DNA from: Tetradesmus obliquus
Lineage: Eukaryota; Chlorophyta; Chlorophyceae; Sphaeropleales; Scenedesmaceae
Reading direction: 5' to 3'
DNA length: 64,000 nucleotides
Assembly: GCA_030272155.1 (NCBI GenBank)
Contig: CP126196.1
Location: 2,232,001-2,296,000 of the forward strand
The position numbers and the translations under genes are program-made. The notes beneath the pieces were generated by a model, which was not told the DNA's origin, did no database searches, and saw nothing but the letters and a program-made list of their open reading frames with translations. Below are positions 2,841 through 61,325 of the stretch, piece by piece (positions within the stretch are counted from its first letter, which is position 1; the number at the start of each line of letters is the position of its first letter).

Positions 2841-5800
2841 CTGCAGGCAGCAGTGGAGGCACATTGTAACAATCATGTAACGTTACATTGCTCAACCAAC
2901 GAGTTGGATTCTTGATTGAGAGCCATTGAGAGGCTTGAAGGCGGAGTGACACAGCGCAGCATCACAGAGAAAGGCCTTGTCAACAGGCTGCAGCAGCATG
3001 CTCTGCAGGCATCAGCGGAGGGGGCGCAGATTGATTGCATGCAAGCTGGCTAGTATTACATCCTAGTAGGTTAGTGTACACACTGGTGACCATGCAACCA
3101 TGCTTGTCAACACATAACCCTAGGTGGTTGAGGACCGAATGATGTGCATGTGGGCCTTGGCGCCATCTGCAGGCAGTCTGGGTCACAACATGAACAAACA
3201 AATACAACACAAAACATTGCAGGCAAAACATTGCAGCACTCACGTAGCGCGGGTTGGTGATGGTGGCGCTGAAGTTCAGCCCATCCTGCGCCACAACCTG
3301 CCAACTGCATCCAGGGACATTGCAACACCACGCATATCAAACACATCACCCTGTTTGGCTGAAAAAAAGCTTGTATGTGAGGCGCGACATGCCTCAACAA
3401 AGGCAAACACTGCGCACTGCAACACTCACGTAGCGCGGGTTGGTGATGGTGGCGCTGAAGCACAGCCCATCCTGCACCACCAGCTGCCAACTCATTCAAA
3501 GTCATGCCATGACCATGCACCTCAACCACATCACCCTACTTGAGTGAGCACCGAGTAATTTGCATGTGGGCCTTGGCATCATCTGCTGGCAGTGTGAGTC
3601 ATAACATGAACAAACAGATGCAACACAAAACACTCCAGGCAATGCGGCAGTCACGTGGCGTGGGTTGGTGATGGTGGCGCTGAAGCGCAGCCCATCCTGC
3701 GCCACAACCAGCCAACTGCATCTGACGACATTCCAACACCACGCATACCAAACACATCACCCTGTTTGGCTGAGAATTTTGAATTGTATGTGTGGCATGG
3801 AGCCATGAGGGGCTACATGAGTTTAAAAGTGCAAACACGCCGCACTGCAACACTTACTTAGCGCGGATTGGTGATGGTGGCGCTGAAGCGCAACCCATCC
3901 TGCGCCACAACCTGCCAACTGCATCTCAAGGCATAACACCACGCATATCAAACACATCCCCCTGTTTGGCTTGGACATAACTTGTATGTGGGGCATGGTG
4001 CCATGAGGCGCGGCGTGAATGAACAAATGCAAACACTCCGCACCGCAGCACTCACGTAGCGTGGGTTTGTGATGGTGGCGCTGAAGCACAGCCCATCCTG
4101 CACCACCAGCTGCCAACTCATTCAATGTCATGCCATGCACCTCAACCACATCACCCTACTTGGGTGAGCACCGAATCATTTGCAAACATTACATTACATT
4201 ACATTACAGGCTCCACTCAACGAGGAGTGGGAACCCCATTCAGGATAACGAGGAGTAGGAACCCCATTCAGGAAGGAGTGGGAACCCCATTCAGGAAGGA
4301 GTGGGCACTCCATTCAGGAAGGAGTGGGAACCCCATTCAGGAATTTGCATGTGGGCCTTGGCATCATCTGCTGGCAGTCTGAGTCACAATATGATCAAAC
4401 AGATACAACACAAAACCTTGGTAGCGTGGGTTGGTGATGGTGGCACTGAAGCGCAGCCCATCATGCGCCACAAGCTGCCAACTGCATCTACAGACATTTC
4501 AACACCGTGCACATCAGACACATCACCCTGTTTGGCTTTGAATCATGAATTGTATGTGTGGCATGGTGCCATGAGGCACGACATGATTTATAAATAATGC
4601 AAACACTCCGCGCTGCAACACTCACGTAGCGTGGGTTGGTGATGGTGGCGCTGAAGCGTAGCCCATCCTGCGCCACCACCTGCCAACTGCATCCAATGTC
4701 ATGCCATGACCATGCACCTCAACCACACAACCCTACTTGAACGAGCACCAACTGATCTGCATGTGGGCCTTGGCATCATCTGCTGGCAGTCTGAACCACA
4801 ACATGAACAAACAGATACAACAGAAAACATTGCAGGCAATGCAGCACTCACGTAGCGCGGATTGGTGATGGTGGCGCTGACGTGCAGCCCATCCTGCGCC
4901 ACCACCTGCCAACTGCATCCAAAGACATTCCAACACCACGCATATCAAACACATCACCCTGTTTGGCTTTGAACAAAGCTATTATGTGGGGCATGGAGCC
5001 AGGAGGCACAACATGAGTTAACAGATGCAAACACTGCGCACTGCAGCACTCACGTAGAGTGGGTTGGTGATGGTGGCGCTGAAGCGCAGCCCATCCTGCG
5101 CCACCAGCTGCCAACTGCATCTAAAGACATGCCAACACCACGCATATCAACCACATAACCCTACTTGGTTGAGCACCAAATAATTTGCATGTGGGCCTTG
5201 GCGCCACCTGCAGGTTGTATGAGTCACAACATGAACAAACAGATACAAACCAAACACACTGCGGGACACAAAACACACTGCAACACTCACGTAGCGTGGG
5301 TTGGTGATGGTGGCGCTGAATCGCAGCCCATCCTGCGCCACGGGGCGGTACAGCCCCAGCAGCAGCAGCCCGCGCTGCAGCAGTAGGTTGTGGAACAGCC
5401 GACCGTAGCTGCTGCCTGCACAATCAGTGCTGATCTGTATGACAAGTTTTTGGCGGGCGGCAAATAACACAAATAACACAGGCAGTGAGGTGGTACCAAT
5501 GGTTGTGGTTTCTGAATGCGTGAATATATGTGGCTTAAATCCAGAACAAAATGGGAATGAAATGCTCGGAAGATGAAATTGTACAGCAGGGCACGATATA
5601 AACACTGGTGGTGGTGGTGTGGTTGGCAGGGGTATTGGTAGCATGTAGCACGCCGGTCGTAGCTGCTACCTGCACAGTTGATGCTGATCTGCAGGGCAGA
5701 GATGGGACGAATTGTGTTGGCGGCAAGCAAGCACATTTCGGTTGAGGTTTGTGTTGCATTATTGTGTATGATTTGAAAATCCCAAATAAATTGTCGGCAC

Positions 5801-8800
5801 AGCAGTTACAAGTTGAAGATGGTTTGGGCAGGCTGTGCATACATGGGATGCACTGCAGCGTCAGCGCGTTGAGAATTACTGCGGCACACAGCATGCATGC
5901 ATGCATGCAGCAGAGGGCATGACTCATCCTCAAACACGACATGTGCTACAACCTGTGAGTCATGCAATCGCAACAGCCTTCTGCAAAGTATGCTGCAGGC
6001 ATCGCAATTAACACAATATGTGCATGCATGTGAAGCATATGTCAATGCATGCAGCACCACCATAATGGTCTTTTTAAAAACACCCTCCCCAAAAAAACAC
6101 TTTCCCCACAAAATGCATGAACACTGTTAGTTCACCAGCCGCCACACCTGCAAGATTGTGGGCACTGCTGCACCCTTTGCAGCAGCGCCAGCAGCAGCGG
6201 TGCTGGCTCCAGAGCTGCTGCATATGCTTGGCATGAAGGCGGGGTTCGATAACGGCTGGTGCTGCTGCTGCTGCTGCTGCTGCTGCTGCTGCTGCTGCTG
6301 CTGCTGCTGCTGCTGATCCAATGCACCCCCCGTGCTGTGCTGGTCAGGCAAGCCCATTTCAACGTCCACATCAGGAGGCCCTGCTGCTGCTTCTGCTGCT
6401 GCTGCTGCTGCTGCTGCTGCTGCTATGTTGGCCGCCTTCTGCTGCTGCACCGCTTGCATGGCCATGTCATTGCCCTGGTTGCTGCTGCTGCCGCTGCTGC
6501 TGTTGTTGTTCATTTTAGCACTACCACCTGCCGGCAATCGACTCAAGTGTTGCTGCTGCTGCTGATGTAGCTGCTGCTGCAGCTGCGCCAGTTGCCCCTG
6601 CAACCCATCTCCGCTGCTGCTGCTCATGTGCCAGCGATGCAGCAGCTGCAGGATAATCCTGTCTGCTGCATCATTGCAGTAGCTTGACAGCATCAGATCG
6701 TCAATCAGCTGAGGTACAAACACAGCCCCGGATATGAATGCAGGGGACAGCAGGGGCTGCCTGCGTGAAGGTACGCTGCGTAGGGGGGCCACTGGCATGA
6801 GGTATCCCATGTTTTGCGGCAGGATGAGCTCGGTCATAACCTGCATGTGCGGGTTGAGGCTGCGCAGCAGCTGGAAGATGCTGAGCACCATGGCGTCTGC
6901 AGCAGCAGCAGCAGCAGCAGCAGCAGCAGCAGCAGCAGCAGCAGCAGCAGCAGCAGCAGCAGCAGGGCAAGGCAACAGGTGGTCAGCCTGAGCATGCAGC
7001 TGACAAAGAATGCGGAGCACCACGGCACCTGCAGCAAGTCAGGTCACGTGGGCAGGGCAGCAGCTGCAGGCGCAGCAGCACTAGCAGCGACCCAAAATAA
7101 CAAAATAACACCCACCTGTCATGACCTTGCCGGCCAGCTTTGCATCTTCAGTGTCCTCATCATGCGTGGCCAGCGGGGACAGCAGGATGGCCTGCGCAGC
7201 AGCCTCGGCATTGGCCCGCAGCAGCGCATCGTTCAGACCATCCACCATCTGCATAGCAGACAGAACGAAAAAGCAGCAGCGGTGGCAGCAGTGGTGCATG
7301 TCACTTGAGCTAGCCGAGGCTGTGCCCGCAGCAGCGCATCGTTCAGGCCATCCACCATCTGAGCAGCAGACAGTGGGGAACAGCAGCAGCATTGGCAGCA
7401 GCAGTGCATGTTACTTGGGCTAGCCAGCAGCCTCGGCATTGGCCCGAAGCAGCGCATCGTTCAGCCCGTCCACCATCTGAGCAGCAGACGGAAGGAAACA
7501 GCGGTAGCAGCAGCAGCAGCAGCAGCAGCAGTGCATGTCACATGGCCTGCGCAGCAGCCTCTGCATTGGCCCGCAGCAGCGCATCATTCAGCCCGTCCAC
7601 CATCTGCATAGCAGGCAGTGGGGAACAGCGGCAGCAGTGACAGCAGTGGTGCATGTCACTTGAGCTAGCCGAGGCTGTGCCCGCAGCAGCGCATCGTTCA
7701 GGCCATCCACCATCTGCATAGCAGGCAGTGGGGAGCAGCGGCAGCAGTGACAGCAGCGGACGCAGAGGCAGCAGGGATGCGATGTCTTGAACCAGGTTGC
7801 CAAGACAAAAAAAACCACGCAGCAGACATCTGCATTGGCGTGCCACCCACAACTATCACCTGCACATCTTGCTAAGAAGCAGCAAACCTGCCCTGGAGTT
7901 GAGGTACAACCTGACCTGACAGGTGCTGATCACTGCTCAAGCGTACCTACTGCACATACGTAGGATGCACTAGGATGCATTGCACTGTTTGCTGCCTCCC
8001 ACCTGTATGAAGATGGTGTCGGTGAACTGCTCCAGGGTGGCCCAGCAGTTGTGCCGTCCACCATCTTGTTTCGCATTGCGTTACAATGCACTGGCATGTC
8101 ATTACATTACAACCTTTGCGGCCCACCTGTAGGAAGAAGGTGTCGCTGAACTGCGCCAGTGTGGCCCAGCATTCACGCCATCCACCATCTTTGCAGGGCA
8201 TTGCATTACACTGCATTTCTTTTCACTGCACTGGCACGTCATTCCTATATAAGATTGCGTCCCACCTGAATGAGGAAGGTGTCACTGAATTGCGTCCCAC
8301 CTGAATGAAGAAGGTGTCACTGAATTGCGTCCCACCTGAATGAAGAAGGTGTCACTGAATTGCGTCCCACCTGAATGAAGAAGGTGTTACTGAACTGTGC
8401 CAGTGTGGCCCAGCACACGCCAGTGCCTGGCGGCTGCGCATCAATGATGACCAGCGGGCGCCAATGCAGCAGCCGCCTGCAGCAGCAGCAGCAACAGCAG
8501 CAGCAGCAGCAGCAGCAGCAGCAGCAGCAGCAAGGTAGATTCAGCCGTGACGAACTTAATCTCCTACGTGGCCAGTGAAACATGGTCAAACCTGTTTTCA
8601 CTGAAGTCAATCTTGCCAAGCCGTCAAAGGAAAATGCTTGCAGTCCCACCAATGCCAACCAGCGCAATCCTCTTGTCTTTCTTTGAAGCAGTCAAACTCA
8701 CACCTGCTGCGCAGTAGCGCCAACAGCGCCTCCTGGCTGCCGCATGCCCTCTACCAGGGTGTGCGCATCTGCTAAGAGACAGTCAAACTTGGTCAAACAT

Positions 8801-61073: not shown

Positions 61074-61325
61074 CAGCAGCAGCAGCAGCGCAGCAACAAC
61101 AGCAGCAGCAGTTGCCGCAACGGCAGCGGCTGGGCGTGGGCGTTGACTAGGAAGCGCTGCAGATGTATCATTGCATGGCCGGCATGCTGGCTGCAGTGGG
61201 TGGCGCGCAAGCACGAGCTGCTGCCCGTCACTGAGGTAGATGCTGAGGTGGCGGCTGATGTGGCAGCTGATGTGGCAGCAGCGCCAGTTGTGGGCTTGGT
61301 GAGCAGGAAGCTGGCACGAGACTGA
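60228..61325 (+). repeat. Echoes of the TEX261-like second exon, one past the stop codon
   Basis: An acceptor-side echo (CTGCAG|CTTCCGCCTCAGGC) lies at about 60235-60262, 90 bp before the real acceptor. A long 3' echo at 61185-61325 repeats the last ~45 codons of the gene including the stop (LQWVARKHELLPVTEVDAEV, then GLVSRKLARD and TGA), with a VAAD duplication. Because it lies past the stop, it is not intronic in this model. Confidence 0.85.

What the first reader, a model, noticed from the sequence alone, without database searches (positions are those of the whole stretch)
3235..61325. Exon-edge echoes: tandem splice-junction duplications in almost every gene
In six genes across 58 kb, introns contain 1-9 tandem, diverged copies of the adjacent exon's edge (about 20-140 nt) plus its splice site and flanking intron. 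Copies before an exon are always acceptor-side; copies after it are donor-side. I count over 90. Only the junction attached to the whole exon keeps the phase, so the used site must be the last acceptor of an acceptor array or the first donor of a donor array. Different divergence levels point to an ongoing process, perhaps repair-driven tandem duplication tolerated only when it falls into an intron. Nobody reading one gene would see the rule; across the window it is striking.
Basis: partly seen in the sequence, partly recalled or inferred. Interest (0 to 1): 0.88.

Follow-up and report, generated by a model that had tools for sequence, protein, structure and literature searches.

The report
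Tandem exon-edge copies in algal introns
In the green alga Tetradesmus obliquus many introns hold rows of slightly changed copies of the neighbouring exon's edge together with its splice site; they look like left-overs of local DNA duplications that splicing hides and that keep exchanging sequence with the working exon, and they make a natural test of how a cell picks the right splice site.

Summary
The window lies on a Tetradesmus obliquus chromosome. In four genes with curated models, 34 of 78 junction sides carry 80 tandem copies of exon edge plus splice site (27 of 39 introns); Sec16 adds 11. Exon-only probes give 154 hits in these genes and 26 other loci, none in reverse-complemented introns.

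The rule of sides follows automatically from duplication across a junction. It is not special to splicing: a stop codon and 4 of 27 predicted gene ends show it. Abutting duplications are few and not concentrated at junctions (11 edge, 9 noncoding; expected 6.6, 8.0). The edge bias sits in spaced copies whose spacers no longer match.

Unexpected: between two intronic copies the exon-derived part has diverged half as much as the flanking intron (0.106 vs 0.205), and copies look mosaic. I infer frequent local duplication, splicing-out, and continued exchange between exon and copies. Copy splice sites are mostly intact and often score as high as the used one, so position or exon definition must choose. 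A silent-change excess in copies is unexplained; no RNA evidence was available.

The parts
49381..59107 (-). COG4 gene (13 exons), reference model for the arrays
   Evidence: P0003 maps with 0 mismatches, GT..AG introns; Pfam COG4_N/m/C
58114..58388 (-). 3 acceptor-side copies of exon 57733-58041
57246..57636 (-). 4 donor-side copies of exon 57733-58041
56858..57084 (-). 2 acceptor-side copies of exon 56608-56750
56207..56367 (-). 2 acceptor-side copies of exon 55788-56115
55575..55649 (-). 1 donor-side copy of exon 55788-56115
53301..54053 (-). 4 donor-side copies of exon 54166-54338
53105..53203 (-). 1 acceptor-side copy of exon 52813-53044
52581..52644 (-). 1 acceptor-side copy of exon 52360-52519
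52243..52298 (-). 1 donor-side copy of exon 52360-52519 (donor now begins CT)
51903..51960 (-). 1 acceptor-side copy of exon 51613-51733
51199..51297 (-). 1 acceptor-side copy of exon 50935-51129
50674..50854 (-). 2 donor-side copies of exon 50935-51129
49613..49914 (-). 3 acceptor-side copies of exon 49381-49539
48942..49295 (-). 3 copies of the COG4 CDS end; similarity stops within 2 nt of the end of the stop codon
17853..18473 (-). 6 acceptor-side copies of K+ channel exon 17687-17773
16389..16442 (-). 1 acceptor-side copy of K+ channel exon 16170-16328
16074..16102 (-). 1 donor-side copy of K+ channel exon 16170-16328 (similarity ends 15 nt before the junction)
14789..15995 (-). 2 acceptor-side and 5 donor-side copies of K+ channel exon 15566-15694, on its two sides
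14276..14349 (-). 1 acceptor-side copy of K+ channel exon 13592-14089
11985..13382 (-). 5 acceptor-side and 2 donor-side copies of K+ channel exon 12476-12685, on its two sides
11212..11902 (-). 6 acceptor-side copies of K+ channel exon 10616-11143
9672..9918 (-). 2 acceptor-side copies of K+ channel exon 9479-9600
8691..9030 (-). 3 donor-side copies of K+ channel exon 9101-9219
7993..8180 (-). 2 donor-side copies of K+ channel exon 8371-8476
8254..8394 (-). four 35-nt units, 98% alike, whose unit holds 24 nt of the end of exon 8371-8476 plus its donor: a young donor-edge array inside the 60-nt margin that one search did not search
   Evidence: unit read against the exon end
6985..7759 (-). 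acceptor-side copies of K+ channel exons 7116-7248 (4) and 6148-6896 (1)
3229..5341 (-). donor-side array of K+ channel exon about 5291-5408 (exon not confirmed by a homologue; copies not counted)
25217..25852 (+). 1 acceptor-side and 1 donor-side copy of cation-efflux exon 25369-25571
27113..28087 (+). 1 acceptor-side and 3 donor-side copies of cation-efflux exon 27281-27485 (one of the three stops 87 nt short of the junction)
37145..38022 (+). 7 donor-side copies of a Sec16 exon edge at 37068
40404..40817 (+). 4 acceptor-side copies (41-43 nt of exon each) of the Sec16 exon starting at 40896
46176..47620 (+). 6 donor-side copies (exons 45968-46102 and 46720-46872) and 1 acceptor-side copy (exon 47699-47860) of the rhodanese/TST gene
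60948..61074 (+). upstream copy of a predicted Erv26-like exon (original within 61188-61326); predicted donor changed to ATGAG

Best explanation
Local tandem duplication (units mostly 50-300 nt; array spacing mostly 117-163 nt) happens often in this genome, without clear preference for junctions. Duplications inside coding sequence tend to be lost. Those that span a coding/noncoding edge survive when the extra copy is removed with the intron or lies beyond the CDS end. The splice site attached to the complete exon is the one used: last acceptor of an acceptor array, first donor of a donor array. Spacers then decay, while the exon-derived part of each copy is repeatedly renewed by exchange (slippage or gene conversion) with the exon and with other copies, so that exon edge plus splice consensus stays recognisable longest. 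Shown here: the anatomy, no clear placement bias of abutting duplications (20 edge or noncoding pairs), slower divergence of exon-derived parts than of flanks, mosaic copies. Inferred: that exchange is the cause, that copies are not used in mRNA, that exon definition selects the site.
For: Exon-only probes: 154 hits, 0 in reversed introns, 137 within 3 nt of the junction. Spacing of junctions median 128.5 nt, no frame bias (54/47/43 by remainder). Abutting duplications 11 edge, 9 noncoding, 2 coding (expected 6.6, 8.0, 6.8; 17 copy-copy pairs set aside). Copy-to-copy divergence 0.106 in the exon part against 0.205 in the adjoining intron over 27 arrays, p = 1.6e-5; 0.105 in 58 pairs whose flanks no longer align. 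34 of 91 informative site pairs fail the four-gamete test; coalescent-tree simulation gave on average 3.9 of 154 and at most 19 such pairs, a star tree on average 3.3 and at most 11. Differing codons are clustered: 228 adjacent pairs, 202 +- 9 after permutation. Copies occur at CDS ends. P0003 and relatives' proteins carry the duplicated stretches once.
Against: Silent changes are too common in copies for simple neutrality: 357 silent to 212 replacement distinct changes (0.627, bootstrap 0.573-0.676), whereas neutral copies beside a constrained exon should give at most about 0.45-0.50 (my estimate), and copy-copy nearest pairs show 21 to 11. Exchange alone does not explain this. Codons with two or more changes were dropped, which inflates the share; in arrays of three or more copies the copy-private share is 0.522 (0.411-0.635), which does not exclude neutrality. 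On a star tree the simulated fraction of incompatible pairs (0.51) exceeds the observed 0.37, though with 12 instead of 51 informative sites; intermediate trees were not simulated. Spaced repeats of 95% identity or more are edge-biased too (44 edge, 16 noncoding; expected 25, 34). Copies are found by exon similarity, which favours conserved exon parts. Outside the window coding-coding repeats are not clearly depleted (15 and 10 against 23.8 and 8.8), and exon models there are my own predictions.
Confidence: 0.62

Rival explanations
1. The copies are used: their splice sites and coding parts are kept by direct selection because they serve in alternative or recursive splicing.
For: Fourfold sites differ more than nondegenerate sites between copy and exon (0.15-0.21 against 0.04-0.06). 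Splice dinucleotides intact in 73 of 79 and 75 of 87 copies. Some copy scores at least as high as the used site in 10 of 20 acceptor and 10 of 14 donor arrays of the curated genes. Nearest copy-copy pairs: 21 silent to 11 replacement changes, p = 7e-5 against 0.31. COG4 copies: 28 copy-derived replacement differences in 455 codons beside 64 silent codon differences.
Against: Unit lengths are not multiples of three; spacers are not conserved; a seamless swap would need AGGT inside the copied part and only 17 of 101 arrays have it, at CDS-average density; 11 of 80 window copies carry frame-breaking indels; intact dinucleotides are close to what 5% change per site would leave.
Confidence: 0.13
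2. Simple neutral fossils: tandem duplications with no exchange; edges stay visible only because the exon itself is frozen.
For: Abutting duplications show no clear edge preference; intact splice sites match neutral decay; copy-private changes in arrays of three or more copies do not exclude neutrality.
Against: Exon parts of two intronic copies should diverge as fast as their flanks but do so half as fast; copies look mosaic; exon part at about 0.10 with flanks unalignable in 58 of 146 copy pairs.
Confidence: 0.17
3. A mechanism tied to splicing or transcription copies exon edges into introns (junction-targeted duplication).
For: Spaced repeats are strongly edge-biased: 156 edge against 32 noncoding, expected 84 and 95, also in the class of 95% identity or more; exon part clusters near 53 nt.
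Against: Abutting duplications are not clearly biased; the COG4 stop codon and 4 of 27 predicted CDS ends also have copies, though the COG4 start and the TST stop have none; far breakpoints in the exon show no common motif by eye.
Confidence: 0.06
4. Assembly or repeat-collapse artefact.
For: Tandem arrays are error-prone to assemble (general knowledge; no call).
Against: Window copies differ from the exon by 2-20% with copy-specific changes; P0003 reads cleanly through the gene; 13 of 20 sampled loci elsewhere show the same.
Confidence: 0.02

Closest known systems
Tandem genomic duplication as a source of introns (passages of PMC3443670 and PMC2891723; PMC4974935 by listing and abstract start)
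   Same: Local tandem duplication touching exons, neutralised by splicing
   Different: There a duplicated AGGT makes a new intron; here the unit spans an existing junction and copies pile up inside the intron. AGGT is not enriched in the copied part
Internal gene duplication (Gao and Lynch 2009, seen only as a citation in PMC3443670; content recalled)
   Same: Duplication within genes
   Different: Density and repetition: up to 6 copies per edge in the curated genes, 7 in Sec16, with signs of exchange between copy and exon
Mutually exclusive duplicated exons (recalled)
   Same: Tandem copies of exon sequence in introns
   Different: Usually only one edge of the exon is copied, units break the frame, no second splice motif seen on the far side
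Minisatellites with concerted evolution (recalled)
   Same: Tandem units of about 100-160 nt, copy number differences, mosaic copies
   Different: Units are anchored on functional exon edges; the exon-derived part is kept alike more than the rest
Introners (one passage of PMC9860276)
   Same: Intron-linked repeats, reported mainly from fast-evolving lineages such as green algae
   Different: Each array looks private to its junction: 0 of 80 units match 24 other loci

Membership tests
Intron gain by tandem genomic duplication | AGGT proto-splice site in the duplicated exon segment | tested here: not met
   17 of 101 arrays (15 shared by exon and copy), density 0.0031 against 0.0028 in CDS
Intron gain by tandem genomic duplication | Intron position absent in close relatives | not testable with these tools
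   No nucleotide sequence of relatives was available
Mutually exclusive exons | Whole exon copied with both splice sites | tested here: not met
   Copied exon part median 53 nt, anchored at one junction; one exception at 60948-61074 with a changed donor
Mutually exclusive exons | Copies used one at a time in mRNA | not testable with these tools
   No RNA reads
Introners | Similar sequence shared between introns of unrelated genes | tested here: not met
   0 of 80 array units match 24 distant loci of 10 kb; the rest of the genome was not searched with them
Neutral local tandem duplications | Placement independent of junctions | tested here: inconclusive
   Abutting pairs 11 edge, 9 noncoding, 2 coding; expected 6.6, 8.0, 6.8; 17 copy-copy pairs set aside; small numbers
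Neutral local tandem duplications | All parts of a copy diverge at one rate | tested here: not met
   0.106 exon part against 0.205 flank, 27 arrays
Concerted evolution by repeat exchange | Phylogenetically incompatible sites within copies | tested here: met
   34 of 91 pairs in 19 arrays against at most 19 (coalescent) or 11 (star) in 40 simulations each; simple models only

The most novel reading that the evidence does not exclude
The copies form a bank of spare exon edges that keeps exchanging sequence with the working exon. Because a bad copy can overwrite or fuse with the exon, selection acts on copies at second hand, which would explain why they tend to keep protein sequence and splice sites while spacers vanish. 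The alga tolerates strong decoy sites because it picks splice sites by exon definition.
Probability: 0.2. Interest if true: 0.82.

Novelty: new variant of a known kind. Interest (0 to 1): 0.6.

Why it matters
It offers many natural experiments in which similar, similarly strong splice sites lie about 130 nt apart and only one gives the right protein, so exon definition against scanning can be tested directly. It bears on long introns and on gene annotation in this group, and gives a measurable record of local duplication and repeat exchange at functional boundaries.

Tried and rejected
Targeted junction duplication: no support from abutting pairs, on small numbers. Frame-keeping units: no multiple-of-three bias. 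Far-side splice motif making copies full exons: none seen by eye. Internal AG|GT swap: not enriched. Dispersed element: no match in 24 loci. Known RNA families at gathering score in the window: none. Early impression of strong coding constraint on copies: weakened once more loci and arrays of three or more copies were used. First spacing estimates carried an artefact of the 60-nt search margin and were redone; the same margin hid the 35-nt array at 8254-8394. A badly set window made several alignments compare a region with itself; those were ignored. The script failed part-way; its open parts were redone. My note says 14 of 20 loci; the correct count is 13 of 20. One of three protein searches (a Sec16 open frame) gave only two hits. 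Literature searches listed no paper that I recognised as describing such arrays; I saw listings and abstract starts, and the library holds only openly licensed PubMed Central papers.
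Full report
WHAT IT IS. The window is G000:C6:2232001-2296000 of a 104.66-Mb genome in 17 contigs. A search with the COG4 protein returned P0003, 'hypothetical protein OEZ86_003832 [Tetradesmus obliquus]', on a contig of 6,224,436 bases, the length of contig C6. So this is a chromosome of the green alga Tetradesmus obliquus. Pfam on my predicted proteins gives a Slo-like K+ channel, a cation-efflux protein, COG4, a rhodanese and a low-scoring Erv26 match. 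Sec16 rests on two homologues carrying PF12931 (the name of that accession is recalled).

CHECK OF THE OBSERVATION. P0003 maps to the minus strand with 13 exons, no mismatch, and GT..AG introns. With that model and curated models of three more genes, 34 of 78 junction sides carry 80 copies (COG4 26, K+ channel 41, cation efflux 6, TST 7), in 27 of 39 introns. In the K+ channel only 18 exons that I judged reliable were used. Exon-only probes give 69 hits in the window genes, 73 in 20 sampled loci and 12 in six more, against 0 in reverse-complemented introns in each set; 137 of 154 hits begin within 3 nt of the junction. In the 20 sampled loci, with exons from my own gene finder, 52 of 708 junction sides carry 91 copies, in 13 of 20 loci. 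Of the six extra loci, the two that flank the window hold 3 copies, L033 and L034 hold 21, L032 none, and L031 gave no multi-exon gene. The window is denser than the sample: 36% against 13% of bases in near direct repeats.

ANATOMY. Over 78 arrays with 144 copies, consecutive junctions are spaced by a median of 128.5 nt (middle half 117-163; 4 of 144 below 80), the exon part has a median of 53 nt, and spacing has no frame bias. Copies come in two kinds. In one the flanking intron is still similar. In the other similarity ends a few nt beyond the junction, about where the splice consensus ends; there flanks score like shuffled sequence in 25 of 34 (window) and 29 of 46 (sampled) copies, yet the exon part has about the same divergence in both kinds. 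At the COG4 stop codon three downstream copies end at the stop; the COG4 start and the TST stop have none; of predicted genes, 2 of 14 starts and 2 of 13 stops have copies. Introns with copies are longer: 219-1332 nt against 78-406 nt in the four genes.

IS THE JUNCTION SPECIAL? For local direct repeats in gene regions I compared edge pairs (one copy coding, one not), noncoding pairs and coding pairs with the same pair slid along the gene. All repeats: 163 edge, 21 noncoding, 25 coding, 13 other; 53 pairs between copies were set aside; expected 82 edge, 78 noncoding, 42 coding. With stricter similarity and split by anatomy: abutting pairs 11 edge, 9 noncoding, 2 coding (expected 6.6, 8.0, 6.8; 17 copy-copy set aside); spaced pairs 156, 32, 25 and 1 other (expected 84, 95, 32; 83 set aside); spaced pairs of at least 95% identity 44, 16, 9 (expected 25, 34, 9). 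So duplications that still abut are not focused on junctions, on small numbers; the bias is in repeats whose spacers have ceased to match.

WHY EXON PARTS SURVIVE. The exon is frozen by selection, but that does not explain likeness between two intronic copies. Of 146 copy-copy pairs, 74 have homologous flanks: exon part 0.103, flank 0.166; averaged by array (27) 0.106 and 0.205, p = 1.6e-5. In 58 pairs with unalignable flanks the exon part still differs by only 0.105; 14 pairs in between were not used. In 19 arrays of at least three copies 34 of 91 informative pairs of sites are incompatible with one tree, more than in 40 simulations each on coalescent trees (mean 3.9, maximum 19) or star trees (mean 3.3, maximum 11; but with few informative sites and a higher incompatible fraction, 0.51). 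Differing codons are clustered (228 adjacent pairs; 202 +- 9 in permutations). Exchange between exon and copies explains these. In the Sec16 acceptor array 41-43 nt of exon edge is identical in two of four copies and has one mismatch in each of the others, while whole units align at 73-75% over the array and 89% among the nearest ones.

ARE THE COPIES USED? Their splice dinucleotides are intact in 73 of 79 (window) and 75 of 87 (sampled loci), close to neutral loss at about 5% per site. Used sites score higher on average (acceptors 6.8 against 5.1, donors 6.2 against 5.4 in the curated genes, broken copies left out), yet some copy scores at least as high as the used site in 10 of 20 acceptor and 10 of 14 donor arrays there, and in 10 of 28 and 24 of 39 arrays elsewhere (weights from my own gene finder). 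So strength alone cannot choose; exon definition is my inference. Silent changes exceed the neutral expectation: 357 to 212 distinct changes over 101 arrays (0.627; 0.573-0.676); copy-private 112 to 95, exon-private 40 to 12; in arrays of three or more copies 48 to 44; nearest copy-copy pairs 21 to 11. The neutral share is about 0.31 (0.25-0.36 by mutation model); with exon changes added at most about 0.45-0.50 by my estimate. Multi-change codons were dropped, which inflates the silent share. Outgroup proteins put replacement differences mainly on the copies: COG4 28 copy-derived, 9 exon-derived, 1 neither; K+ channel 36, 7, 27. I read this as relaxed but perhaps not absent constraint. It is the main loose end; second-hand selection through exchange is one possible answer.

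KNOWN AND NEW. Passages of PMC3443670 and PMC2891723 describe tandem duplication of AGGT-bearing exon segments as a route to new introns; one passage of PMC9860276 names green algae among lineages where introners are mainly found. PMC4974935 was seen as listing and abstract start only. None of what I saw describes arrays of exon edges inside existing introns. I call it a new variant of a known kind: tandem duplication within genes, at unusual density, with evidence of continuing exchange at exon edges.

LIMITS. One genome, no RNA, no nucleotide data from relatives, 260 kb of sampled loci, and gene models outside the four curated genes from my own simple predictor.

Noticed in passing
20333-20532: A dispersed repeat of about 200 nt inside a K+ channel intron; 40 scored matches in the genome including itself, the others at 83-98% identity (a capped list), and one partial match in 240 kb of sampled loci.
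   Followed up: partly
48942-49295 (-): Three copies of the COG4 CDS end lie downstream of the stop codon, with similarity stopping at the stop codon: the edge-copy pattern without any splice site.
   Followed up: yes
60948-61074 (+): Tandem copy of a predicted whole Erv26-like exon whose donor has become ATGAG; the one whole-exon duplication I noticed.
   Followed up: partly
57733-58041 donor end and 54166-54338 (-): Intronic copies keep the residue seen in relatives (Q, L) where the working COG4 exon has changed (L, F), so some arrays are older than these changes.
   Followed up: partly
8254-8394 (-): Four 35-nt units, 98% alike, hold the last 24 nt of K+ channel exon 8371-8476 with its donor: a young edge array with a much shorter unit than the others.
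   Followed up: partly
29875-37077 (+): A 2401-aa open frame in Sec16 with 589 Ala and 342 Gln; CAG-type microsatellites are common across the window.
   Followed up: no
9334-9436: An AAT repeat of 34 units in the K+ channel region, unlike the CAG-type repeats elsewhere.
   Followed up: no
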